IMG/VR virus record: IMGVR_UViG_3300030098_005498
Span: 25,484 to 89,483 of that record
Source: a virus
Reading direction: 5' to 3' (one strand)
Length of the DNA stretch: 64,000 bases
Shown: piece by piece, positions 31,748-59,549 of the stretch
How positions within the stretch are numbered: position 1 is the stretch's first letter
How the letters are laid out: every line of letters starts with the position of its first letter
Position numbers and translations under genes: made by a program
The notes under the pieces: generated by a model
Database searches by the model: none
What the model was told of the DNA's origin: nothing
Seen by the model: the letters and a program-made list of their open reading frames with translations, nothing else

Positions 31748-32224
31748 TCAGTAATTACAACGTGAAAAAACTGCACACCAGTAAATTCTTCCAGATTTCG
31801 ATTTGGCAGCACCAAATCCAACAGCGTTATATCCGCCTAAAATGTTGGACCTATGACCGCCGGAGTTCATCCAAGATCTAGTAACCTCACCATAGCCAGA
31901 TTGACCATAGGCAATATTTTCTCCAATTCCGCCAAAACCAGACCCAACTCGTCTAGATGGGCTTGATCCATTTCTTCCTGTATGACTAAGCCTGTTACTG
32001 CTAGCCATCCAATCTGCATGTTTTTGTGCGGCATCTGTAAGTCTTTTATCTAATACTAAGGCACGACGACCATTTCGAGAACGTTCGCGATTATGAGTAA
32101 GCAAAAGATTATCATTTAATTTCTTTACTAATCTAACTCTTTTTTGTTGTGAAGTTTCGGTCTCCTGCGTCCACGCATTGGAAACCAAGCAACAACAAAC
32201 AAGCAAACTTAAAACACTTCTCAT
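31748..32224 (-). CDS. secreted CAP/SCP-domain protein
   Basis: The 158-residue protein has a signal peptide (MRSVLSLLVCCCLVSNAWT) and a full CAP domain: LLTHNRERSRNGR, AAQKHADWMASSNRLSHTG, GIGENIAYGQ and MNSGGHRSNILGGYNAVGFG, including the His/Glu cavity residues. CAP proteins occur in all kingdoms and are generally exported; bacterial forms have no agreed activity. An exported copy in a phage would act in the periplasm or outside the infected cell. Confidence 0.85.
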   Translation of the reverse strand: MRSVLSLLVCCCLVSNAWTQETETSQQKRVRLVKKLNDNLLLTHNRERSRNGRRALVLDKRLTDAAQKHADWMASSNRLSHTGRNGSSPSRRVGSGFGGIGENIAYGQSGYGEVTRSWMNSGGHRSNILGGYNAVGFGAAKSKSGRIYWCAVFSRCNY

Positions 32225-32397: not shown

Positions 32398-33021
32398 TTA
32401 TTTTTTCTTATGAATACCAAATCCATTTCTGTCATGTGAATCAATAATACAGTCCCACTCTGGATCGTCTAGCAATTCTCGGTGTGCCATTCTTGTTTTT
32501 AACTCTAGCGTGTCGTCAAGAATTATAATTTTTGATTTAGGTTTAAGCAATTTAAATTCTGCAAAAGTGCTAAATTCACCACCATCCAACAGTAGTACAT
32601 CTATTTCCATGTTTTCTAAAAGGTGTGCTTCATTGTTACAGCTTTTAAAAGCCTTTACGTCGTCATCAAAGAATCTTTTAGAGAGGGATTTATGTACATG
32701 GTTTTCGTAATTCGCTTTTACATGTGGAGTTTCTAGGGTCCACATGTCTTCTATTTCAATAATCCTTCCATGCACTAAGTTAAACTGATTATTAGGCTTA
32801 TCCCCCCAAAAATTCAAAGCCTGATCATAAAAATTTTTGTTTGCTTCAAAAGATATAAATTTCCAGTTATCGGCTCGGGTGGATAGTCCATCCCAAAAGC
32901 ACAGCGTAGAACCTTGACCATTCCAAGTTCCTATTTCTACATAATTTAGGTATCGCTCATCTAAAGCTAATTCATGAATTATGTCGCCTAAAACGCTACC
33001 TAAATTTATTTGTCCTGGCAT
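32398..33021 (-). CDS. SAM-dependent methyltransferase-like protein
   Basis: From ATG 33021 the 207-residue protein has a class I methyltransferase layout: YVEIGTWNGQGSTLCF (SAM loop), WKFISFEANKNFYDQA (acidic strand 2 end) and IDVLLLDGGEFSTFAEF (motif IV region). It resembles TylF/CmcI-type or FkbM-like small-molecule and sugar O-methyltransferases. It may decorate the glycans made by the sugar-transfer genes; the substrate is unproven. Confidence 0.65.
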   Translation of the reverse strand: MPGQINLGSVLGDIIHELALDERYLNYVEIGTWNGQGSTLCFWDGLSTRADNWKFISFEANKNFYDQALNFWGDKPNNQFNLVHGRIIEIEDMWTLETPHVKANYENHVHKSLSKRFFDDDVKAFKSCNNEAHLLENMEIDVLLLDGGEFSTFAEFKLLKPKSKIIILDDTLELKTRMAHRELLDDPEWDCIIDSHDRNGFGIHKKK

Positions 33022-33048
33022 CAGCAATATACCTTTTAATTTTTTGGT

Positions 33049-33231
33049 TTAGTATGATTGATTAAGTTTTCTTACAAGTTTTTGTTTGTCCTTTTCTAAC
33101 TTTCTTTTTCTCTTGTTAATTTCTTTAAACTCTGATGAGTTTAATTCAACATTGTAAGACTTTTCTTGAAGCAGATCTAATCTGTCTTCAATATTACGAA
33201 TCGAGTTAAGTATATTCTTTTTGTTTTTCAT
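33049..33231 (-). CDS. small coiled-coil protein
   Basis: A 60-residue charged helical protein (NIEDRLDLLQEKSYNVELNS; KRKRKLEKDKQKLVRKLNQS) from ATG 33231. The ribosome site is weak and the start follows a GC-rich hairpin, so translation may depend on that structure. Confidence 0.5.
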   Translation of the reverse strand: MKNKKNILNSIRNIEDRLDLLQEKSYNVELNSSEFKEINKRKRKLEKDKQKLVRKLNQSY

Positions 33232-33242
33232 GATTTTATAAA

Positions 33243-33300
33243 GACCGGCGGAGCAAAAGAGAAGATGATGAAACAACTAATTCGTTCACTCCGCGAGGTC
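33243..33300 (-). other. GC-rich hairpin in the ssb downstream region
   Basis: GACC..GCGGAG pairs with CTCCGC..GGTC across a loop of roughly 35 nt. On the minus strand it lies between the ssb stop and the next small gene; on the plus strand it is followed by TATTTTT. It could be a terminator or a leader element. It stands out from its AT-rich surroundings. Confidence 0.4.
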
Positions 33301-33312
33301 TATTTTTAAATG

Positions 33313-33654
33313 TTAAAAGGTTTCAGCCTTTTCCCTAATTGGCTTAACAACCTTAGAAAACGTACTAGGCAGCACAGAATAAGAAGTACGACTAACTCCA
33401 TTTTTGTCTTCCCAATTACGTTGACGCAATCTGCCATCAATAATTACACGATCACCTTTGCTAAGGTCAACATTTTGTGCATATCCGGCATGACTTCCCC
33501 AACCATCTACATCCATATAAACAGTTTCTTCTTTTCCATTGCCTGTGCTTTCATTGACAGCAATACGAAAAGAAACGAGATCCTTATCAGACACTTGCTT
33601 ATATTCTGGATCTCTAGTCAAATTTCCCTTTAGAATAATTCTATTATTCAACAT
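33313..33654 (-). CDS. ssb: single-stranded DNA-binding protein
   Basis: The 113-residue protein is a single OB-fold of the bacterial SSB family: NNRIILKGNLTRDPEYKQVS, LVSFRIAVNEST, GDRVIIDGRLRQRNWEDKNG. It ends without the acidic tail that recruits host repair proteins (AETF), which may isolate it from host partners. It would protect single strands during phage replication with the helicase, primase and RecA encoded elsewhere in the window. Confidence 0.88.
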   Translation of the reverse strand: MLNNRIILKGNLTRDPEYKQVSDKDLVSFRIAVNESTGNGKEETVYMDVDGWGSHAGYAQNVDLSKGDRVIIDGRLRQRNWEDKNGVSRTSYSVLPSTFSKVVKPIREKAETF

Positions 33655-33668
33655 TTCAAGCTCCCAAA

Positions 33669-33881
33669 TTAAGTTACATTTCTACGATTCAAAGCTTTGC
33701 GGGTCAAGGTTCTAGCACGATTAACACCGCCTGTACGAAGAAGGCTACGAACCTCTCCCCCTGTATCAGTTCCCGCAAAATGTGAATAAAATTCACGTCC
33801 AGTAATGTCCCCCATTGCAAATTTTTGTGCAAGAGATACATTCTTGCGATTCGATAAAATCGAATTCCAATCAGTCATCAT
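33669..33881 (-). CDS. hypothetical small protein
   Basis: A 70-residue protein (NSILSNRKNVSLAQKFAMGD) with a basic C-terminus (NRARTLTRKALNRRN). Its ATG overlaps the upstream stop (ATGA); a second ATG follows at once. Confidence 0.5.
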   Translation of the reverse strand: MMTDWNSILSNRKNVSLAQKFAMGDITGREFYSHFAGTDTGGEVRSLLRTGGVNRARTLTRKALNRRNVT

Positions 33882-34303
33882 TTACTCTCTCCTTTCAAAG
33901 AAACACTCACTAATTTATGTGGACAATTATACAAATTATCGCACAATACAGACTTTTTAAATTTGCCCATATATAGGATATGGGTTCCCCCCGATACTTG
34001 TCGCTTTCCGAACTTGGAAATCTCATAAGCTTTTATATAATCTCTTCCAAGTCCTTGAATTTCAAATTTACCATATGACCCCATGTAAACCTTTTCTTGT
34101 GTTTCAGGATTTTGCCAGTAAGGACCGTTGCCATATATAGATCTTATAATATCACCAGTTTTTAATTCCTTCCAATCTTTAACCAATGCCACTTTTTTAG
34201 TGTAAAAACAATGTCCACAATCACATTCAGATTTTCTTGCATGAACTTTTAATCCACATTTTGGACATGTTTTAAGTGGTGCCCCACGTTTCTTTTTAGC
34301 CAT
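33878..34303 (-). CDS. zinc-ribbon protein
   Basis: The 141-residue protein starts with a basic segment and a ribbon (TCPKCGLKVHARKSECDCGH); the rest looks like an SH3-like beta domain (VKDWKELKTGDIIRSIYGNG) with two further Cys (LCDNLYNCPHK). It has a consensus promoter. Nucleic-acid binding is plausible but unproven. Confidence 0.6.
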   Translation of the reverse strand: MAKKKRGAPLKTCPKCGLKVHARKSECDCGHCFYTKKVALVKDWKELKTGDIIRSIYGNGPYWQNPETQEKVYMGSYGKFEIQGLGRDYIKAYEISKFGKRQVSGGTHILYMGKFKKSVLCDNLYNCPHKLVSVSLKGESK

Positions 34304-34342
34304 CCGTATTTCCTTTACTTTACTCGCTTCGGTTTACACTAC

Positions 34343-34371
34343 ATTATAGCCTATGGTTGTACTTTTGTCAA
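34343..34371 (-). promoter_or_regulatory. sigma-70 type promoter
   Basis: Perfect TTGACA and TATAAT separated by 17 nt on the minus strand, about 40 nt upstream of the zinc-ribbon gene; it probably drives the run through ssb. Confidence 0.8.
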
Positions 34372-34401
34372 CTCTTCAAGCAACATTTTTTAAAAATAAT
34401 G

Positions 34402-34920
34402 CTATTTATCAACTCTTTTTGATGATAACATAACCGCAGATTCAATAAAATCTTTATCGTCAATTTGATTCGACGGAATGTAAAAAATATTGATAGTTTC
34501 TGAAACCATTTTTAATACTTTGTGATAGTCTTCATTCCCAATTACACATTTAGGATCTGACACATCTGTAAATATAATTTCTCTTATACCACATTGGTAT
34601 AATGCCTGCAAACAATACAGACAGGGAATTGCGGTTACATAAGCCGAGGCCCCCAGTGTGCTACGTCCTAGTCTTGTGCAGTTATAGATCGCATTTGCTT
34701 CAGCATGAATCATGTATGGATATTTTTCTGGCCTACTTTTAGGAAGTGCATCATCATCAACATTTCTAATAAAACCATTGTATCCACTAGATAACATAGT
34801 TTTATCTTTAACCAATACACAGCCACATTGTGTTTGCTGATCAGGACTTGATCTTGACCAAAAGATTGCTTCCAATAAAAATTTATTATCCCATTTTGTT
34901 AATTTTCTAGATTCAAACAT
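34402..34920 (-). CDS. dCMP deaminase
   Basis: The 172-residue enzyme has the zinc deaminase motifs YMIHAEANAIYNCTRLG (HAE) and VTAIPCLYCLQALYQCGI (PCxxC), plus GCVLVKDKTMLSSGYNGFIR upstream. It converts dCMP to dUMP, the substrate of the ThyX encoded at 13920. Fold length and motifs match ComEB/T4-type deoxycytidylate deaminases. Confidence 0.9.
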   Translation of the reverse strand: MFESRKLTKWDNKFLLEAIFWSRSSPDQQTQCGCVLVKDKTMLSSGYNGFIRNVDDDALPKSRPEKYPYMIHAEANAIYNCTRLGRSTLGASAYVTAIPCLYCLQALYQCGIREIIFTDVSDPKCVIGNEDYHKVLKMVSETINIFYIPSNQIDDKDFIESAVMLSSKRVDK

Positions 34921-34944
34921 GCTACATCCTTAATAGTTCAATAT

Positions 34945-35212
34945 TTGGAATGGCGAATTGGGTAACAAGGCTCGCCACACCCCGTGCTACTTACGCAGCA
35001 AGTGCAAGAGTTTCCTCTGCATTTAAAAATTTGATCTTGTTTTTAGGTAGCCTCAAGACCAACTACCACATGCAACCATTACTTCTATTTGTACGTCGAA
35101 TCTAAGTCACCCCCTTTTTTAATTTATCGAGTGGAGGTGGGGGGAATTGCACCCCCGTCCGCAGCAAATGCCTATAACAGCGTCTACATGTTTAGTTCTC
35201 CAAAAGAAGAAC
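34945..35212 (-). ncRNA. ssrA: tmRNA, circularly permuted (two-piece) form
   Basis: Acceptor piece first (35132-35212): a GTTCTTC/GGAGAAC hairpin, ACTAAACATGTAG, a T-arm with GGGGG/CCCCC, then CACCTCC plus A. After 17 nt the coding piece (35114 downward) starts GGGGGTGACTTAGATTCGACG. GGGGGTG pairs with CACCTCC; TAGTT/AACTA and GCATGT/ACATGT form P2; GGTAG/CTACC with GGTCTTG/CAAGATC form pseudoknot PK1. Twelve nt later a GCA resume codon opens the tag A-EETLALAA-stop (34991-35020). A closing hairpin follows at 34951-34977. Exact ends are uncertain. Confidence 0.88.
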
Positions 35213-35214
35213 AA

Positions 35215-35259
35215 AGCCAATCCTGGGAATCGAACCCATAATATACCTATTGGTTGGCT
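35215..35259 (-). other. T-arm-like hairpin upstream of the tmRNA acceptor piece
   Basis: AGCCAACC pairs with GGATTGGCT (one bulge) around a GGGTTCGATTCCC hairpin that has the tRNA T-loop sequence. No D-arm, anticodon arm or matching 5' acceptor is present, so it is not a tRNA. It may be the 5' portion of the tmRNA precursor or a relic of a tRNA 3' end. Confidence 0.45.
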
Positions 35260-35262
35260 GTA

Positions 35263-35370
35263 TCAATTTAACCACAGCGGTGCTACACTTGTAACAAACA
35301 ACATTACACAAATAGCCCAAAATACCGGATTTAGAACGCAAGTAAACATCCACTGTGAAATAAGCCTCAT
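35263..35370 (-). CDS. 35-residue membrane micro-protein
   Basis: ATG 35370 follows AGGAGAAAAAAG and encodes MRLISQWMFTCVLNPVFWAI followed by CVMLFVTSVAPLWLN, one or two hydrophobic segments. The ribosome site is strong. Function unknown; it lies just before the tmRNA. Confidence 0.5.
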   Translation of the reverse strand: MRLISQWMFTCVLNPVFWAICVMLFVTSVAPLWLN

Positions 35371-35471
35371 CTTTTTTCTCCTATACAATAAAAAGTTAAC
35401 GATGTGGGAATAACTACCATTATGGATTATTACGCATTATGAAAAGAAAATGCGAATATATTGTCTATTTG

Positions 35472-36839
35472 TCAAACTATTATCTCTTCTATTGAAAATG
35501 TTTTTGCTTCCTCTCCGTTAAAGTGAAAAGGAATTTGATCTTCCAATGGAACAGAGTATTTGGCACATCTGCCACAGTTTCTATTTCCACCATTACCACC
35601 GTGGTTGGTGGCTGAATATTTTGAAATATGTTGCACCGGAGATGGGTCAAAGAACCACATAGATCTACCCATTTTGTTCATAATCCCCCCTATAGCGGTA
35701 TCGCTATTTTGGATAGTGTGTGGATTTTTTTCTCTTTCCCTTTTCTTGTTTTCCCATGCTGACTTTGTTTTTATTCTGGCACCTCTCCAGTTTTCTATCA
35801 TCGGATGTTGCATCACCTGTTCTAAAACTTTTCTCGGCCAAATAACTGCACAAGTTCCCCATAGTGCCCTTGTGGGAATATGATTCAGTCCAATAGGTCT
35901 ATAGGGTTTGCTTTTAAGATGTTGTCTTTTACTATAATGCCTGGGTGTATATAATGATACAAATCCAGTTGTGGTACAGGGCCATAAAAATTTTTCAGAA
36001 AAAGACTTTGAGTCTGGGTGGAACAATGAATCATCTTGTACTGTCATTATAATATCTGCATCACTATTGTCAAGTGCATATCTACAGCTTGATATCCAAT
36101 TCCACCAAATTCCTTTTCTTTCTTCGTGAACAATTAGGTTTTCTTTATATTCATCATTTATTTGATACACTCCAGGTTCGGCAAATATATATGGTCTCCA
36201 GCCATTTATTAGCAAAGAATCTAAACAAAGTTGCAATGTTGGTTCTTTTCTTGGTGCTGTTGTCACAGCTACAAACCAATTGTGTTTTTGCCTGCCTTCT
36301 TTTTCTTCCGCTCTTCTTATAGCCGTTTGAACCAGATTTGTACAAACCTTACGGGTAGCAAGGTCTGGAACCCATGACAAAAAACTACGTTTATTTTTTT
36401 CGTTTATTAATCTTTGCACTATGTGATGAATATTTCTCTTGCATCCTTCAATGCCCCATAAGTTCATTTTTTTTGCATAGTTTCTACAGTCGCACGACGG
36501 TTTTTCCATCCACTCTGGAATCATTTTCTTCAATTCTGTACCCGGACCTTCGCCAAAATATTCTTTTGCTTTTTCACGAACTTCTACTCTTGTCTTGTCT
36601 TTATTTGCCAATCTTGCAAATCTAATGCCTTTATTATCTGGAGATTTTTCATATCCTCCAGCGTTTTTACACAATGTACAATGAACTGTTTCAACATATA
36701 CTGTTTGTTTGTTGTTATTTAAACTCGTGGCAAATTTACAAATCATATTATTTGTTGTCGGGCATTTTGTACGCATATTACATGGAAGGTTTTCAAACTG
36801 TTGTGTTTCAACCACTCTAATATTTTTTTTGTTATCCAT
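35472..36839 (-). CDS. glycosyltransferase (GT-A, GT2-like) with Cys-rich N-terminus
   Basis: The C-terminal two thirds of this 455-residue protein show a GT-A fold: WFVAVTTAPRKEPTLQLCLD, RYALDNSDADIIMTVQDDSL (QDD as DxD) and RALWGTCAVIWPRKVLEQVM. The first 140 residues contain several Cys pairs (CTLCKNAGG; CDCRNYAKK) that may bind zinc. It is the largest of the sugar-transfer genes and lies just downstream of the giant fibre gene, so a fibre glycosylation role is possible. Confidence 0.7.
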   Translation of the reverse strand: MDNKKNIRVVETQQFENLPCNMRTKCPTTNNMICKFATSLNNNKQTVYVETVHCTLCKNAGGYEKSPDNKGIRFARLANKDKTRVEVREKAKEYFGEGPGTELKKMIPEWMEKPSCDCRNYAKKMNLWGIEGCKRNIHHIVQRLINEKNKRSFLSWVPDLATRKVCTNLVQTAIRRAEEKEGRQKHNWFVAVTTAPRKEPTLQLCLDSLLINGWRPYIFAEPGVYQINDEYKENLIVHEERKGIWWNWISSCRYALDNSDADIIMTVQDDSLFHPDSKSFSEKFLWPCTTTGFVSLYTPRHYSKRQHLKSKPYRPIGLNHIPTRALWGTCAVIWPRKVLEQVMQHPMIENWRGARIKTKSAWENKKREREKNPHTIQNSDTAIGGIMNKMGRSMWFFDPSPVQHISKYSATNHGGNGGNRNCGRCAKYSVPLEDQIPFHFNGEEAKTFSIEEIIV

Positions 36840-36899
36840 AAAATAATTCCCGAAGTTTATATAATAAATAGATTGATCAACGTATTATAGTTATTTATA

Positions 36900-39800
36900 T
36901 TACTCGTCGCACGATTTTTGTTGCCCAGATGCATCTTTATAACCGCATGGTATTATTATAGTTTGATTAGCATATCCAATACAAGGATTTGTGTCTAATC
37001 CATAACAGTCACAGGAGTTATTCTCTCTCCCCTTGCAGTCATTGATGAAATTAACAACGTTTTCATTTTCATCGCATTCGCAAACACATCCACCGTCACA
37101 GCATTCATTATAAATTGGATAAAATGAATATGCTGACGCTGTACAGCATCCCGTTCCAACAGTTACGCTACCAGTAGCATCTCTCAATAGAGTGTCATCA
37201 TACCAGGGACTAAGTATAACCTTTCTGAAATCTAAGGAAGATCCTAATGCTGTTGCTGCCAAATAACCAGCAGACGTGTTTTTAACTTCATAATCTCTTG
37301 ATGTTAGACTAGCATTGTTTGGATCGTCAAAAGTGTCTGTAGATGCTTCATTGTCTAATGCAGAAGGGGCTCCGGTTATATCACTTGCTAGACAATTCGT
37401 CTTAGGAAGGTTGGTAGAATTTCCTTGTATACATCTATCAGTCGAACTAGAGGAGGTGCAATCACTAACTATAGAGTTTTTTATTGCTCCACCAGCACCA
37501 GAAACTGCCGAAACACCCCTACAGGCGTTGTTAACGGTGGTAGCGTCGTGAAATGTGCAATGGTATATACTTAGAGGTTGGTTTGATGGATTCTGGTATC
37601 TAATAAATCCACTGGTGCCACTTCCAGTGGAAGTGCTAGTAAACTTATAAATTAAAGAATTATACATATTTAAAGCGATACTATGGTTTGGCTTACCTTC
37701 TATCATGAAGTTGCCCCTATTTGACGTGGATATATTTCTCATAATACAACGTTTTATATTAATTGTTTGTGCGTTTGTATTACGAAGACTCCACATTCCT
37801 TGAAAATTCGTTCCAGGATTATTGCCATTAAAGTCAATCAATAAATCTTCAAATGTGAACTCGGGTGCATTTGCTGTCGTGCCCCAAATAAATTGATAAT
37901 TTCCGCTCCAAATAATTCTACATTTACCACCAGCTCCATTAGCCGCGACATTTCCTTCATGAGCAGTGCCACTAGCGGGACGTATAGTAACGCTGTTTAG
38001 AAAAGAGTTTGGATTAATGCCAGTAGTAGAAAATTCAATGGCTGAATTAATTGTATGATCTTCTCCACGTAGTACAAATATAACATCTTGTATATGGTTG
38101 CCCATGCTAGATAATGCAGTAAAGGCTGCCGCAATTGTAGCATAGTCATCGCTGGCGTCTGATCCAACTGTGAATGTAGCTGCTGGAGCTACGTAGGTTG
38201 GCTCATCGCTTGTATAAGTCTTATATGTACAATCTGTCACCTTTGTAAAGTTAACAGGATCTGCATCATCATCAGCAACTCTAAACCAAAGATCATAATG
38301 CATGTCAGTTGCAACTACGTCGGTAGCCCCCCCGGTTCTTTCATTTTCACAAGGAAGACGGTCCTTTCCCTTTGCCGCCGCACAATCTCTTGCACAATCA
38401 CGAACTAACCATGTCCAGGGTGCATAACGGGCTGCGGGATAACCGTGTAATTTTGTCATAGTAGCATCATCTCGCCAGAAGAATGTGCCCCCATCACAAT
38501 GCTCTTCGCAACTGGCTGGAGTTTCTTTATCCATCCATACTTTATTACAATTCGTTCCAGTGCAAGATTTTTTAACTGTAAGAGTAAAATTTTCTGGCCC
38601 AGTCGTAATTCCGGCATCAGCAGTTCCGGCTTCATTCTTTAGTTCTATATAGCTTCCACAGTATGAGAGATCAAAACCACTAATCGTATAAATGCCACTA
38701 TCTGTTCCGGTTTTTTCTACTCGATTACCTTCCGCAATACCCTTTTCAAAAGCCTGATCACACCACGCATAAGTTACACCCCCCGCACCCGCCACGCCAT
38801 CTATTCCAATTTCAGTACAGGTCAATTGATATTCATCTGGATTATCCCATGCATAGTTATTTCTAACAAAATAAATCTGTATGTCGCGTTTAGGACTACC
38901 CTCTGTGCAGGTAATATAAAATGTATAATGTGATGTTTCTTCTACTCCAGGCACTTGATTGTCGTTTTTATCAAGACATTCACATTCTATACACTCTCCT
39001 TCATGAGTTCCAATAGTGTCAGCTGGCTCATCGTTATCACAAAACTGGTTTGGAATTTCTAATTCCGCCGTGTACAATGCTTTTCCAGCCGTGCCATCAC
39101 AAAAGTTTGCGATCGCAGTATCTCCTGCATCATAATATGCTTCGTCGCTATTGTCTACCTGAGATGAAGAATCACAAATTTTAGTAAATGTCAATGTGGT
39201 TCCATTTGTGTCATTGCATCCACATGGGTCAGTGGAAGATGAAATACCGCTTATATCATCAGAAGAGTTTATTAATACCGTGAATTGTTCTGGACATGTT
39301 GTGCAGTCGCTACTGCTTGAACTAAGGTCACTACTTGAACTGGAACTACTAGAACTACTGGAGCTGCTACTCGAAGATGAACTGCTGCTGGAACTACTGC
39401 TGGAACTACTACTACTGCTACTGCTGGAACTACTACTCGAAGATGAACTACTGCTGGAGCTACTGCTTGAAGAACTGCTACTGCTGGAGCTACTGCTCGA
39501 AGAGCTGCTGCTACTACTGGAACTACTAGAGCTGCTAGAGCTACTGGAGCTACTTGAACTACTGGAGGAGCTGCTTGAAGATGAGCTACTGCTGGAACTG
39601 CTGCTGGAACTGCTGGAGCTACTGGAGGAACTGCTGCTAGAACTGCTGCTGGAGCTACTAGAGCTACTGCTTAAAGAACTAGAACTACTGGAGGAGCTAG
39701 ATTCTTCTTCACAGCATTTCTTGCCATGTCCATGACGAACCCTATCTCTAGACCCTAAACCGGGAGGGAAATACTCTTTCCAAACCCCACTCTTCGAGAC

Positions 39801-48105: not shown

Positions 48106-49170
48106 TTATACTTTATTATCGTAATGTACCCTATTAACTTTCACAGCTTTTGCACATTTTGGTAAATCTTTTAGACAGGTAGCCCCAACGTAAGCACAAC
48201 AGCTACGCAAACCACCCTGAATATCGTTGATTATGATGTCAACTGAACCTTTATAGGGTATTTTTTTAACCCTCCCCTCGCTGCAAACGTAGTTTGCCAT
48301 ACCCCCTCTGTATTTTTCTTGAGCTTTTTCTGAGGACATTCCATAAAAACTTAAATTTTTCTTTACCATTACTGCATCCAGATCTCGTTCATACTCCCAC
48401 TCGCCTTCACATTCTTCTGTGCCCGCCAACATACCTCCCAGCATAACAAAATCAGCGTTAGCAGCGAAAGCTTTGCAAACATCGGCTGGCAGTCGACATC
48501 CACCATCGGCACAGATTAGACCCATTCTTTTGTCTTCACTTTTCAAACCATGTGCTGCATGACTACATTCAATTATTGCAGAAAGTTGAGGATATCCACA
48601 ACCCGTCTTTAATCTAGTGGTGCAAGCACTACCGGGACCAATTCCAATCTTTACAATGTCAGCCCCGCCATGAAGAATTAATTCTTGTACCATTTCTGGA
48701 GTGCAAACATTGCCCGCCATTATGATTGAATTTGGAAAGTTTTCTCTAATCTTTGCACACCATTTAACAAATTTTTCCGTATAACCATTGGCGACATCAA
48801 TACAAATATTCGGAGCATTATATAGTCCTTTGGATATATCTTTGACCTTGAATATTTCGTTTTCGTTCATACCAATGCTGACCCATATATTTTCCTCTGC
48901 TTCACATGAGTCAAAAAAGAAAAAATCAGAACCATAATGTTTGTGTAAACAAGTAATAGCATTATGCTTACTGAGTGCGATTCCCATATTCAGAGTGCCT
49001 GTTGTGTCCATATTGGCGGCCATAATGGGGAATCCTTGCCACTCTTTTGAGGAATGGAAGAACTTGAAACTTCTTTCAAGGTTTACTTCTTTTCTACTTG
49101 CTGCGGGAGATCTTGCGGGAACCAGTAATATATCATCAAAGTCTAACTTGGTATCTTCTACAATTTTCAT
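48106..49170 (-). CDS. GMP reductase / IMP dehydrogenase family enzyme
   Basis: The roughly 354-residue protein has the family catalytic loop KIGIGPGSACTTRLKTG (active Cys), DFDDILLVPARSP at the start, CADGGCRLPADVCKAF for phosphate binding and FYGMSSEKAQEKYRG. Absence of CBS domains and the CTTR form favour GMP reductase, converting GMP to IMP with NADPH. The ATG at 49170 overlaps the upstream stop (TAATG) behind GGAAAG; a TTG at 49182 is a weaker alternative. Confidence 0.8.
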   Translation of the reverse strand: MKIVEDTKLDFDDILLVPARSPAASRKEVNLERSFKFFHSSKEWQGFPIMAANMDTTGTLNMGIALSKHNAITCLHKHYGSDFFFFDSCEAEENIWVSIGMNENEIFKVKDISKGLYNAPNICIDVANGYTEKFVKWCAKIRENFPNSIIMAGNVCTPEMVQELILHGGADIVKIGIGPGSACTTRLKTGCGYPQLSAIIECSHAAHGLKSEDKRMGLICADGGCRLPADVCKAFAANADFVMLGGMLAGTEECEGEWEYERDLDAVMVKKNLSFYGMSSEKAQEKYRGGMANYVCSEGRVKKIPYKGSVDIIINDIQGGLRSCCAYVGATCLKDLPKCAKAVKVNRVHYDNKV

Positions 49171-49784
49171 TAATCTTTCCAATCATAAGAATTAAACCAT
49201 TTAGAAAATTGCTTTTGCTTCAAAACAACTCCAGACTTACCACCCATATAATTTATAGGTTTAAACAAATTATTTTTCTTAGCATCTTCGTAAAACTTTT
49301 TTACTTGATCAGACCACATGATACCCCATTTAATTTGATTATTTTTAGACTCTATTAATTTGATATGCTGATCAAGATTATAATCTTTAGGTTTTCTTAA
49401 GTTTGTCCCACATTTTACAGAGTTATAAATAAACAAGATGTTGGCATTTTCTTTTACATAAGCTTTTAAGTCGTTTTCCTTTAATGTAAACTTGCCAGCG
49501 GTGGGAACCCATTTAATTTCTAGAGGTTCGTCTTTTACTTCACGAGGAGACCAGTCAGTTACAGATCCACTAATAGCATAATCGGCTCCGGCAGTATTTC
49601 CTTTTTCAATAAACTCACCATCGTTCCCACATCCATTGTCTTTCCAAGAGTCAACTTTTACATTACTATTTTTATCTTTGACCCTTTTTAACCAACCCTC
49701 AAATAAATATTTTTCCAACATCGTTGCAAATTTAATATCCCTCTTAAATGTATCAATACTTCGATTATCAAATCTATTCGACAT
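49170..49784 (-). CDS. PD-(D/E)XK endonuclease-like protein
   Basis: The 204-residue protein has GADYAISGSV (Asp), EPLEIKWVPTAGKFTLKEND (E-x-K) and later ANILFIYNSVKCG, a plausible restriction-endonuclease-like core. A Lys-rich C-terminal half may contact DNA. It is coupled to the GMP reductase gene by a one-base overlap. It could be a DNA-processing or host-degrading nuclease. Confidence 0.5.
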   Translation of the reverse strand: MSNRFDNRSIDTFKRDIKFATMLEKYLFEGWLKRVKDKNSNVKVDSWKDNGCGNDGEFIEKGNTAGADYAISGSVTDWSPREVKDEPLEIKWVPTAGKFTLKENDLKAYVKENANILFIYNSVKCGTNLRKPKDYNLDQHIKLIESKNNQIKWGIMWSDQVKKFYEDAKKNNLFKPINYMGGKSGVVLKQKQFSKWFNSYDWKD

Positions 49785-56151: not shown

Positions 56152-56352
56152 TTATAATTCCCTTTTTTCTGGAAGATAAATAGTAACCGTTTGATGATTT
56201 AACGATTTCCATTTATCTTTAAGTGCAACACATGTATTGTCATTTTTTCTCATAACAACATGATTCGCTTTGGATAGCGTGGCGAGTTCTGAATCATCAA
56301 GGCCGCGATTTATTTCCCCTTCCTCAACAACTATTATCCTATATTCTTCCAT
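56152..56352 (-). CDS. hypothetical small protein
   Basis: A 66-residue protein (IIVVEEGEINRGLDDSELAT) coupled to uvdE by a one-base overlap and one base from the spike start. Unrecognised. Confidence 0.5.
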   Translation of the reverse strand: MEEYRIIVVEEGEINRGLDDSELATLSKANHVVMRKNDNTCVALKDKWKSLNHQTVTIYLPEKREL

Positions 56353-57407
56353 TATATATTCCAGCCATTATTTTGAATTCCTTGATCGCTTAGTAAAGTT
56401 TTCCACCTTGCTGCATCAGATTTTAATTTTAACTTTTTCATATCGTGATTTATTGCCATTGATGCAACTGCACGAATAGCTTTGTCTTTTGATTTCAATT
56501 CAATATCCCAGTCATATTGATTATTTTGGGGAAAACTACGTGGCATTTCTGCATGACTTCTTGGATTAGTCTTGTATGGATTTGATTCACTATAATGAAA
56601 TATTGGACGACAATTCCAAGTTTTTGCACATTCTTCCATAGCCAACTTATCATTATTCAATAAAGGTGAAGGATTGCACATATGATGAAGATTATCAAAT
56701 GTAATTGGAATTCTGTAAGGTTTGTAAAAATAATCAATTAGATTTTGCACATTCCAACATCCTTTGTCTTCATTTTCTAATACTATACGCTTTTTTACAG
56801 AGATGTGACATCTTTTTAGGTTAGACATGAATCTTTGTGCTATCTCTTCCAAACTACCATCGGTGCAGTTAACATGAATGTTAATCGGGTTAAAATGATT
56901 TCGTTGGCATCCTAGCTGATCCATTAACCAACCTTGATAATTAAGTTCGTTTATAGTTTTATTTACCGCATTTTGGTTATTACTTGCTAAAACGTTAAAC
57001 TGATCTGGATGTGTTGATAATCTGACTCTCAATGATATATCTTCGTCTTCATGCATTTCACGCTCTTCATCTCTTTTAGGAGTCCAAATTAGTGCAGGTC
57101 TATTTACTGCAAAAATTTGCATTATTTCTTTGTACTGAGGAACATCAGATATATCATATTTGAATTCAGGATGAGTTAAACATGGAAAAATTGAGGATGA
57201 TACACGATATCCCCAGTTGTTTCTACTACAGTGTTTGATAGACTCTATAGTAACCTCAACATTGTTTAACCAACGTGATCCTAGTTCGAATAAAGCTTTT
57301 TCGTCTCCAGATTGTTCGCATAATTGAAGAAATCTCTTAAAGGTCATAGTTCTAAAAGAGATTCCCTTTTCCTTGAGATCATTACTGATACAGCACAAAT
57401 TATACAT
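56352..57407 (-). CDS. uvsE: UV damage endonuclease UvdE/UvsE
   Basis: The 351-residue TIM-barrel protein shows the UvdE order: LCCISNDLKEKGISFRTMTF at the start, RVRLSTHPDQFNVLAS (metal His and the probing Gln), KKRIVLENEDKGCW (Glu ligand) and PIFHYSES (His). It nicks 5' to UV photoproducts and so protects phage DNA. Length matches bacterial UvsE. It has a consensus promoter. Confidence 0.88.
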   Translation of the reverse strand: MYNLCCISNDLKEKGISFRTMTFKRFLQLCEQSGDEKALFELGSRWLNNVEVTIESIKHCSRNNWGYRVSSSIFPCLTHPEFKYDISDVPQYKEIMQIFAVNRPALIWTPKRDEEREMHEDEDISLRVRLSTHPDQFNVLASNNQNAVNKTINELNYQGWLMDQLGCQRNHFNPINIHVNCTDGSLEEIAQRFMSNLKRCHISVKKRIVLENEDKGCWNVQNLIDYFYKPYRIPITFDNLHHMCNPSPLLNNDKLAMEECAKTWNCRPIFHYSESNPYKTNPRSHAEMPRSFPQNNQYDWDIELKSKDKAIRAVASMAINHDMKKLKLKSDAARWKTLLSDQGIQNNGWNI

Positions 57408-57484: not shown

Positions 57485-58222
57485 TTATTTTTTTTCAGAT
57501 AAATATTGTAAGAACCCCTCATCAATATTCTTATACTTTCTTTGCTCTGGAGTCATTCCAGCACATGCGTTGTGCAGATCTGGAAAAACTGGATCAACCA
57601 AATATTGTCTTAATATAAAAATAAAACAATTTAATTTTGGAATTGGTATTGTTATTTGTTTTTCTACTTTTACTTTCACAAATGGATTGCTTGGATTGAA
57701 TTTTTGTTTTGGTAAATCTGGGTGAAAATTAATTTTATTTTCAAAAACGGGAGACCAGACAAATCTTTTTAATGGACCTTTCTGACTCGCTATTTCTGCT
57801 AATTTATAACTATCAGATAGATTCATACCTGGAATTGGTGCATGAATTTCTGATAAAGGTCTGCCTATTTTTTCTTCGGGTCTCCAACCAGAAGGAAAGC
57901 AGACATGTGTTGCTTCCAGAGAATCTTTTCCATTGATAGCAGAATGAATAGCAATGTCTTCTTGTAACTGCATCGCTATGTTATCAAAAGTATATGGAGG
58001 TTTTACCCAATTTGCGTGAATATTAATTAAATCTTGAAGATAGTTTAAAACACGGCTTGTTAGAAAGATATTGTGTAGTAGATAGACCTGCTGAGCTTTA
58101 CAGGCTTTCTTTTTTTCTTCTATGTAATCGTCGTAATTTTCATCACGATGAAAGGGAGACTCTTCAAGATCCAATCGTTTTAGTTGAGGTGAGACACTGT
58201 AGCCGTTCTTGTAGGGATTCAT
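57485..58222 (-). CDS. heme-dependent oxidative N-demethylase family (DUF3445/HODM) protein
   Basis: The 245-residue protein contains the family signature at residues 106-133: HVCFPSGWRPEEKIGRPLSE then IHAPIPGM, with an upstream MQLQEDIAIHS and a downstream RFVWSPVF. Known members (bacterial HODM alpha subunit, fungal DUF3445 proteins) bind heme in a PAS-like domain and oxidatively remove methyl groups from small amines. Here the N-terminal fold and signature are kept. The substrate in a phage is unknown. AAGGAG lies 9 nt before the ATG, just after repeat copy A. Confidence 0.7.
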   Translation of the reverse strand: MNPYKNGYSVSPQLKRLDLEESPFHRDENYDDYIEEKKKACKAQQVYLLHNIFLTSRVLNYLQDLINIHANWVKPPYTFDNIAMQLQEDIAIHSAINGKDSLEATHVCFPSGWRPEEKIGRPLSEIHAPIPGMNLSDSYKLAEIASQKGPLKRFVWSPVFENKINFHPDLPKQKFNPSNPFVKVKVEKQITIPIPKLNCFIFILRQYLVDPVFPDLHNACAGMTPEQRKYKNIDEGFLQYLSEKK

Positions 58223-58298: not shown

Positions 58299-59549
58299 TT
58301 AACTTGCGTGAGAAACATCTGAAAACTCAACTTTGTCGCTAACAGTATATTCTTCAACCAACTTATCTACACTTCGACGATGCCAATTCCCAAAAGGAAC
58401 TCCAGCGTCTAAGAGTCTTTTGCCTTGGTAGGCGATGTTATACGCTGCGTTTAATTGTGCATTGTCCTGATGTCCGCATTTAATACAATGGAAATCGTCA
58501 GTAGTTTTTCTGTTATTTGCATGGATGTGTCCACAAAGCGAACACCTTCTGGAAGTATTTTTACAAGGAACAACATAAAACGGAACCCCTTGATTTTCAC
58601 ACATTGTTTGTAGGTTTGGGATAATTTTATCTTGACCAAAAGTTCCAGATGTTGCAATTCTCACACTGTCAATGCAAAACAATTGTTTGTTTTTAATAAC
58701 TGTTGACAGAATATCTTTACAAATTCTTAAAACAATTTTATTGGCCTCTTTGTGTTTTTTCTGAATTTGCAATCTTAGCTTTCTACGTTGTTTAGATCTT
58801 AATTGTCTCCTTTTAACCGTAACCTTTTTATCTTTATCTAAAGACTTATTGATTTCTCTGATTTCTTCTTCTAGCTTAATCAAAGTTTCGGGCTTGGTTA
58901 TTACAGTTCCGTTATTAAAATACATCCAAGATTTAGAATCTTTATTAATATCAAAAGCAAGGATATCATCAGGAACGTAAGATTCACTTACTTCAACGTC
59001 AACTCCAGCAACAAAGCATTTTTGCGTGAAAGAAAAGTTGCCGCCAAAATCTATTTTTGTAATAAGATCTTCTTTTAAACTATACTTGTAGGGAACTTTT
59101 TTAAATTCACCTTTAGGCGTATACATTGTTCTAACAAGAAGAACTTTGTTTTCTTTGTCAATCCTAATCGCGGGCTCACTAAACGTAAAAGATTTATACT
59201 TAAACCCAATAGGAGATTTGATGTCAAGAATCCTGTCTTCATTTCTTCCCCAATAACTGCTATATCTATTAAGAACAATTGAAACGCAGTTACGTTTCAT
59301 TGATTCTCTACAAGTGTCTTTGTCAAACAAGTGATGAACCGAATTCTTGAACTGTGCCTTTGTTTGCTCAGTTCCATCTGAGTATTTAACGTATTGATTT
59401 TTTGTAATTTCTACAATTTTACCGCTTTTGATCATATTTCTAATATACTTAGAAATTCTTCTTTGGGTTTCAAGTTCCTTTTTAAAATCTTCTTCAAGTT
59501 CTGAAAGATCCAATCCCCAAAATTTTGCATTTCTTTTGAACTTAATCAT
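58299..59549 (-). CDS. TnpB-like RNA-guided protein, RuvC site degenerate
   Basis: The 416-residue protein has the TnpB/Cas12 C-terminal architecture: RuvC-I DDILAFDINKDS (Asp200), a Lys/Arg-rich bridge helix (VKRRQLRSKQRRKLRLQIQK), NTSRRCSLCG and FHCIKCG as the zinc ribbon, and LNAAYNIA. RuvC-II carries Asp294 (FCIDSV) where Glu is normal, and RuvC-III reads AQLNAA, with Gln365 in place of the catalytic Asp of DxNAA. This points to a nuclease-inactive TldR-like regulator rather than an active transposon nuclease. No TnpA is present. The 34-nt repeats flank it. Confidence 0.8.
   Translation of the reverse strand: MIKFKRNAKFWGLDLSELEEDFKKELETQRRISKYIRNMIKSGKIVEITKNQYVKYSDGTEQTKAQFKNSVHHLFDKDTCRESMKRNCVSIVLNRYSSYWGRNEDRILDIKSPIGFKYKSFTFSEPAIRIDKENKVLLVRTMYTPKGEFKKVPYKYSLKEDLITKIDFGGNFSFTQKCFVAGVDVEVSESYVPDDILAFDINKDSKSWMYFNNGTVITKPETLIKLEEEIREINKSLDKDKKVTVKRRQLRSKQRRKLRLQIQKKHKEANKIVLRICKDILSTVIKNKQLFCIDSVRIATSGTFGQDKIIPNLQTMCENQGVPFYVVPCKNTSRRCSLCGHIHANNRKTTDDFHCIKCGHQDNAQLNAAYNIAYQGKRLLDAGVPFGNWHRRSVDKLVEEYTVSDKVEFSDVSHAS

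What the first reader, a model, noticed from the sequence alone, without database searches (positions are those of the whole stretch)
34945..35212. Phage-encoded circularly permuted tmRNA with a short AEETLALAA tag
Seen: the 3' acceptor half precedes the 5' half on the transcript with only 17 nt between; acceptor, P2 and PK1 helices all pair, and a 9-residue tag ending LALAA follows PK1 at the expected distance. Established: permuted two-piece tmRNAs occur in alphaproteobacteria, some cyanobacteria and betaproteobacteria. A phage copy would let the phage steer ribosome rescue and tag stalled proteins for proteolysis during infection.
Basis: partly seen in the sequence, partly recalled or inferred. 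Interest (0 to 1): 0.8.

Follow-up and report, generated by a model that had tools for sequence, protein, structure and literature searches.

The report
Phage two-piece tmRNA with swapped halves
A bacterial virus carries its own ribosome-rescue RNA (tmRNA) with its two halves in swapped order; phage copies of this kind are already known, but in close relatives of this phage the same gene site holds either the swapped or the ordinary form, so how the swap happens can be studied directly.

Summary
ARAGORN and Rfam RF04321 (105 bits) both call a permuted tmRNA on the minus strand: acceptor piece 35212-35132, a 17-nt spacer, coding piece from 35114, tag AEETLALAA. Across 20 related phage loci the tRNA-like domain pairs across the two halves (97.6% of cells; 21 of 33 pairs change on both sides), and the alanine signal G3-U70 is invariant. 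No SmpB gene was found and CCA is not encoded, so host factors are presumably needed. Phage-borne permuted tmRNAs are already published (Melnitz), so the kind is known.

The locus is less expected. The tmRNA sits beside a dCMP deaminase in a whole phage family. The window's phage is collinear with a 138.5-kb relative (44 protein pairs, median 60.5% identity) that has a STANDARD one-piece tmRNA at the same place. The three standard genes form one RNA clade next to a permuted one with the same tag, VEENFALAA. In two relatives an HNH endonuclease gene sits in the spacer. Full tRNAs abut the acceptor piece in five relatives; in the window a tRNA-like minihelix takes that place. Function, processing and direction of the form change are inferred, not shown.

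The parts
35132..35212 (-). Acceptor piece (first on the transcript): hairpin 35195-35212, P2 3' strand, T arm 35140-35156 (loop TGCAATT), acceptor 3' strand CACCTCC 35133-35139, discriminator A at 35132; CCA not encoded (CTC follows). Its 5' end is not mapped.
   Evidence: RF04321 alignment, cofold, coordinates, covariation
35115..35131 (-). Intervening segment of 17 nt (CTCGATAAATTAAAAAA), expected to be removed by processing
34945..35114 (-). Coding (mRNA-like) piece: acceptor 5' strand GGGGGTG 35108-35114, P2 5' strand, PK1 35031-35067, tag frame, 3' structured element 34951-34983; its 3' end is not mapped
   Evidence: (RF01850 match reaches 34946)
34991..35020 (-). Tag frame GCA GAG GAA ACT CTT GCA CTT GCT GCG TAA = AEETLALAA*
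35216..35258 (-). tRNA-like minihelix just upstream of the acceptor piece: 7-bp acceptor stem (one mismatch here, perfect in L028), 12-nt linker, T arm with loop TTCGATT (one mismatch here), no D or anticodon arm
   Evidence: no tRNA call there
35238..35266 (-). Sigma-70-like match TTGATA-17-TATTAT overlapping the minihelix; not above chance for the region (1 found, 2.4 expected)
34402..34920 (-). dCMP deaminase gene just downstream; the conserved neighbour of the tmRNA in the family
   Evidence: phrog_174, E 3.5e-30; synteny
35472..36839 (-). 455-aa protein of unknown function upstream of the tmRNA; homologues upstream of the tmRNA in L143, L154 and others

Best explanation
This is most likely a working phage-encoded, circularly permuted (two-piece) ssrA gene. 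Shown: its anatomy, covarying structure, conserved G3-U70, tag frame, and conserved place beside dCMP deaminase in a phage family. Inferred from established tmRNA biology: the precursor is read from the minus strand; RNase P cuts at G35114 and 3' tRNA-processing enzymes after A35132, releasing the 17-nt spacer; the host adds CCA; AlaRS charges it through G3-U70; host SmpB brings it to ribosomes stalled on broken mRNAs; translation resumes at GCA and appends Ala-AEETLALAA for ClpXP-type proteolysis. The likeliest benefit is to keep ribosomes recycling while mRNAs are degraded during infection. In this family the gene form is not fixed: collinear relatives carry the standard one-piece form at the same place.
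For: ARAGORN and Rfam calls. Covariation across both halves in 20 loci, G3-U70 in 20 of 20. PK1-like stems in 18 members. Tags of family members keep an acidic or polar start and an ALAA-type end. Conserved neighbour dCMP deaminase across relatives of 50-97% deaminase identity. Phage context: collinear with a contig holding terminase.
Against: No transcript, processing or tagging data. No SmpB in the record or in eight family records, so function depends on the host. Some relatives with both flanking genes (L142, L153) have no tmRNA call, so it is dispensable. The host is unknown.
Confidence: 0.8

Rival explanations
1. The gene is a decoy: the phage RNA binds host SmpB or ribosomes and dampens host trans-translation rather than performing it.
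For: TLD-only tmRNA-like genes exist in other viral contigs, and the DS6A-like form inhibits endogenous tmRNA in E. coli (PMC11915505; PMC4131195).
Against: This gene keeps a full tag frame with ALAA ending, resume region and PK1, varying but intact across the family, which a decoy would not need.
Confidence: 0.1
2. The gene is kept mainly as a recombination or homing site, or is a hitch-hiker, with little benefit from trans-translation.
For: HNH endonuclease genes in the intervening segment of L130 and L163; RNA-element-like insert in L145 and L166; presence, form and T-loop type vary between relatives.
Against: Compensatory changes keep the structure and the tag frame stays open across diverged members.
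Confidence: 0.08
3. The record is not a phage but a fragment of a bacterial or other element, so the tmRNA is a cellular gene.
For: No recognised virion gene among the proteins scanned in the 89.5-kb record. The gp23 search told nothing, since its control did not ring.
Against: Phage-type replication genes (UvsX-like recombinase, DnaB-like helicase, primase, dNMP kinase, RNR) and collinearity with a 138.5-kb contig holding a terminase and a head-protein match.
Confidence: 0.02

Closest known systems
Permuted two-piece tmRNA of Methylophilales phage Melnitz (MZ577097; PMC9004378)
   Same: Phage-encoded permuted tmRNA with intact tag frame, no host-like SmpB needed in the phage; an early-type phage gene
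   Different: Melnitz is a Kyanoviridae (T4-like) phage with a different replication set, encodes CCA, has a 145-nt intervening segment holding an ORF, a tag ANDNYVPVDYALAA, and a reported glutamine riboswitch; none of these holds in the window
Alphaproteobacterial permuted tmRNA (Rfam RF01849) and the merged RF04321 model
   Same: Gene order, acceptor stem, P2, T arm, PK1, tag position; both models match above gathering score
   Different: CCA not encoded, T loop TGCAATT, tag AEETLALAA; carried by a phage
Standard one-piece tmRNA (RF00023) of the related phages L143/L144, L150, L154
   Same: Same phage family, same place beside the deaminase; L143 is 82% and 87% identical in its two parts to permuted relative L158, with the same tag VEENFALAA
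   Different: Gene order not permuted, one-piece RNA

Membership tests
Permuted (two-piece) tmRNA | 3' (acceptor) half encoded before the 5' half with an intervening segment | tested here: met
Permuted (two-piece) tmRNA | tRNA-like domain: 7-bp acceptor stem with G3-U70, T arm, P2 formed between the two halves | tested here: met
   cofold; covariation in 20 loci
Permuted (two-piece) tmRNA | PK1 followed by a resume codon and an open tag frame with a hydrophobic ...AA end | tested here: met
Permuted (two-piece) tmRNA | Precursor cleaved into two RNAs held by base pairing | not testable with these tools
   needs RNA from infected cells
Permuted (two-piece) tmRNA | Alanylation, SmpB binding and tagging activity | not testable with these tools
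   needs biochemistry
Melnitz-type phage ssrA module | Glutamine riboswitch linked to ssrA | tested here: not met
   no riboswitch match, even at E 5, in 33000-37000
Phage-encoded gene | Lies in a viral genome | tested here: met
   IMG/VR virus record; collinear with a contig carrying terminase; no virion gene recognised in the record itself

The most novel reading that the evidence does not exclude
Within one phage family the same syntenic ssrA gene has switched between the permuted and the standard form in situ, and the intervening segment of the permuted form serves as a safe nest for mobile or accessory genes whose stop codons can lie inside the mature tmRNA. RNase P maturation would then cut the nested mRNA before its stop codon, and tmRNA itself could tag the product (an arfA-like feedback).
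Probability: 0.4. Interest if true: 0.8.

Novelty: new variant of a known kind. Interest (0 to 1): 0.6.

Why it matters
Permuted tmRNAs are known from three main bacterial lineages (alphaproteobacteria, betaproteobacteria, cyanobacteria), and the old events are hard to reconstruct. A phage family in which collinear genomes carry both forms at the same place, with near neighbours sharing a tag, gives close pairs for working out how a stable RNA gene is permuted or un-permuted. The intervening segment as a home for endonuclease genes, and tRNAs or a shrunken tRNA minihelix abutting the acceptor piece, give testable ideas on how the two pieces are made.

Tried and rejected
Blastn of the tmRNA against 50,697 phage records: no match. 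The exact T-arm pattern found only L028 and an unrelated 183.6-kb phage whose sequence reads as a standard-type tmRNA. The single genome scan for a host with this T loop found only two unlike bacterial tmRNAs, so the host is unknown. The deaminase tree is too weakly supported to order the form changes; the RNA tree has no outgroup, so direction is unresolved. Minihelix as a full tRNA: no tRNA call there. SmpB and terminase in the window record: not found; the phrog_2 match at record 36925-37434 overlaps the PhoH-like gene and was not taken as a terminase. The gp23 search gave no information because its control did not ring. No isolate relative was found through the deaminase or DnaB (best below 60% identity).

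Full report
OBSERVATION. ARAGORN calls a permuted tmRNA (tmRNA*) on the minus strand at 34900-35221 with tag AEETLALAA. Rfam RF04321 tmRNA_permuted matches end to end (105.3 bits, gathering 47) and RF01849 alpha_tmRNA matches at 64.8 bits (gathering 50). In transcript order: acceptor piece 35212-35132 (hairpin, P2 3' strand, T arm, CACCTCC, discriminator A), a 17-nt spacer 35131-35115, and the coding piece from G35114 (GGGGGTG, PK1, resume codon GCA at 35020, stop ending at 34991, a 3' structured element). CACCTCC pairs with GGGGGTG over 7 bp including G3-U70. CCA is not encoded (CTC follows the discriminator). Cofolding the two pieces without the spacer gives the same tRNA-like domain.

WHERE IT LIES. 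The window is bases 25484-89483 of an 89,483-base IMG/VR virus record. The record has phage-type replication and nucleotide genes: DnaB-like helicase, primase, UvsX-like recombinase, dNMP kinase, PhoH, thymidylate synthase, ribonucleotide reductase (both subunits), dCMP deaminase. No recognised virion gene turned up among the proteins scanned in this record. It is, however, collinear with a 138.5-kb virus contig (G005, home of L143): 44 protein pairs, 38 of 43 steps in the same order, median identity 60.5%, reductase subunits 84.5% and 86.8%. G005 has a terminase large subunit (phrog_2, 1.7e-23) and a weaker head-protein match. So the record is most likely a tailed-phage genome fragment. SmpB was not found in it or in eight family records, while the control genomes rang.

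THE FAMILY. A profile of the neighbouring dCMP deaminase brought in 80 loci. tmRNA lies upstream of the deaminase in many of them; in L130 it lies downstream. The permuted form is found in the window, L028, L129, L130, L145, L151, L156, L158, L159, L163, L164, L166, L167, L170, L171, L173, L174 and L176 (near-copies not listed). The STANDARD one-piece form is found at the same place in L143/L144, L150 and L154 (RF00023, 106-119 bits). Tags are alike: AEETLALAA (window, L028, L170), ADESLALAA (L164, L173, L176 and, read from the sequence, L130), VEKNFALAA (L129, L156), VEENFALAA (permuted L158 and standard L143), AEPSFAIAA (L150), ADKQFALAA (L154) (for L152, L156, L158, L143, L151 and L171 the pattern used prints one to three extra leading residues, and ARAGORN's frame or the sequence is used here). 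Not every relative has one: L142 and L153 have both flanking genes but no tmRNA call.

COVARIATION. Joining the 5' half and the 3' half of 20 loci, both forms together, RNAalifold gives 33 pairs. 97.6% of cells are standard pairs (shuffled mean 83.1%, maximum 85.5%), 21 pairs change on both sides (shuffled mean 13.1, maximum 18), and G3-U70 is present in 20 of 20. Relatedness inflates such figures, but the P2 segments and the T stem each carry compensatory changes. PK1-like stems of differing sequence were found in all 18 members tested.

FORM CHANGE. In a tree of the RNA (both halves, to the tag stop) the three standard genes form one clade (100/98); the nearest row is permuted L158 (88/93), 82% and 87% identical to L143 in its two parts and with the same tag. 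The tree is unrooted, so permuted-to-standard, standard-to-permuted, or replacement of the gene by recombination with a related phage cannot be told apart. The deaminase tree is weak and does not group the standard forms. That collinear phages carry both forms at one place is shown; in-situ conversion is inference.

INTERVENING SEGMENT. In the window it is 17 nt and empty. In L130 (605 nt) and L163 (588 nt) it holds HNH endonuclease genes, 60% identical to each other, each with an AGGAGG ribosome-binding sequence before the start and with its stop codon inside the coding piece (ending +8 and +13 from G1). In other viral lineages retrieved by the acceptor motif, the segment holds a nuclease-like gene (L045, L060, L066, L118; phrog_452 endonuclease; 42 synonymous against 18 nonsynonymous codon differences between L045 and L066), a small hydrophobic ORF (L085), or a frame with a recurrent motif that runs into the coding piece (L005, L010, L011, L026, L043, L106). 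The published Melnitz gene also has an ORF in its 145-nt segment that ends 42 nt inside the coding piece. The 2025 tmRNA database paper mentions a tRNA gene and a repeat in two intervening segments, and homing endonucleases only in group I introns (PMC11915505). The searches here found no report of protein genes in the segment, which does not show that there is none. A possible consequence, not shown: where the stop codon lies inside the mature RNA, RNase P cleavage would leave a nonstop mRNA that tmRNA itself could tag, as for arfA (own knowledge).

THE MINIHELIX. Three nt before the acceptor piece the window has a tRNA-like minihelix (7-bp acceptor stem, 12-nt linker, T arm with TTCGATT, no D or anticodon arm). 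It is perfect in L028 and has two mismatches in the window; a perfect element of this kind arises 0.00025 times per shuffled 650-nt region. In five relatives a full tRNA (Gln, Glu, Asn, Val, Thr) ends 0-1 nt before the acceptor hairpin. The natural reading is tRNA punctuation: 3' maturation of the tRNA frees the 5' end of the acceptor piece, and in the window's lineage the tRNA has shrunk to its processing signal. Against this: both differences between the window and L028 in the stems break pairs, other relatives have neither tRNA nor minihelix, and a sigma-70-like match overlaps the minihelix. In L170 a perfect TTGACA-16-TATAAT lies at this place (sequence), so a promoter may do the job instead.

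MECHANISM. Shown: anatomy, structure, tag, position. Inferred from established tmRNA biology: RNase P and 3'-processing enzymes make two pieces, host CCA-adding enzyme and AlaRS charge it, host SmpB delivers it, and stalled ribosomes are released with Ala-AEETLALAA tags. Why a phage keeps it is open. Keeping ribosomes recycling while host and phage mRNAs are cut is the simplest reason. A decoy role is less likely because the tag frame and PK1 are kept.

NOVELTY. A phage permuted tmRNA is a known kind: PMC9004378 describes Melnitz and 53 two-piece structures among 133 unique phage tmRNA structures, and more than 50 permuted calls came from one capped motif scan here. The form variation at one locus, the nested HNH genes and the tRNA or minihelix next to the acceptor piece make this family a new variant worth study.

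Noticed in passing
L130:7549-8097 and L163:2196-2726: Homologous HNH endonuclease genes nested in the intervening segment of permuted tmRNAs of this family; each stop codon lies inside the mature coding piece.
   Followed up: partly
L143:2643-2984, L150:2623-2960, L154:2444-2785: Standard one-piece tmRNAs at the same place beside the dCMP deaminase where the window has the permuted form.
   Followed up: partly
L045, L060, L066, L118; L085; L005, L010, L011, L026, L043, L106; Melnitz MZ577097 45984-46436 (L137): Protein-coding frames in the intervening segments of permuted tmRNAs of other phage lineages: a nuclease-like gene, a small hydrophobic ORF, a recurrent YYYTENEWSR-like motif, and an ORF in the published Melnitz gene; several run into the coding piece.
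   Followed up: partly
L145:2662-2785 and L166 about 2580-2710: Insert in the intervening segment bounded by arms AGAAGCACACTA...TAGTGTGTTTCT in both loci; in L145 it folds as a closed structure (z -3.0), no Rfam match; interiors differ. Unexplained.
   Followed up: partly
L145, L163, L166: These three permuted genes, all with long intervening segments, encode CCA, while the other family members do not (L130, with a nested HNH gene, is the exception).
   Followed up: no
L170 against L171: Identical deaminases over the aligned part but unlike tmRNAs: L170 has an alphaproteobacterial-type T loop GGCAGTA, a 5-nt spacer and the window's tag AEETLALAA; L171 has TTCGATT, 13 nt and ANESLALAA. This suggests replacement by recombination.
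   Followed up: no
L033, L037, L046, L051, L052, L056, L057, L058, L063, L079, L080, L092, L097: Short tRNA-like-domain-only tmRNA-like genes (about 80 nt, no tag) in viral contigs, like that of mycobacteriophage DS6A.
   Followed up: no
window 58299-59549: TnpB-like protein (transposase PHROGs, Cas12f1-like TNB domain) followed by tRNA-Ile and tRNA-Arg genes.
   Followed up: no
window 48106-49182, 56352-57407, 57485-58222, 31748-32224: Unusual cargo: IMPDH/GMP-reductase-like protein, UvdE-like UV endonuclease, HODM-like protein, CAP-domain protein.
   Followed up: no
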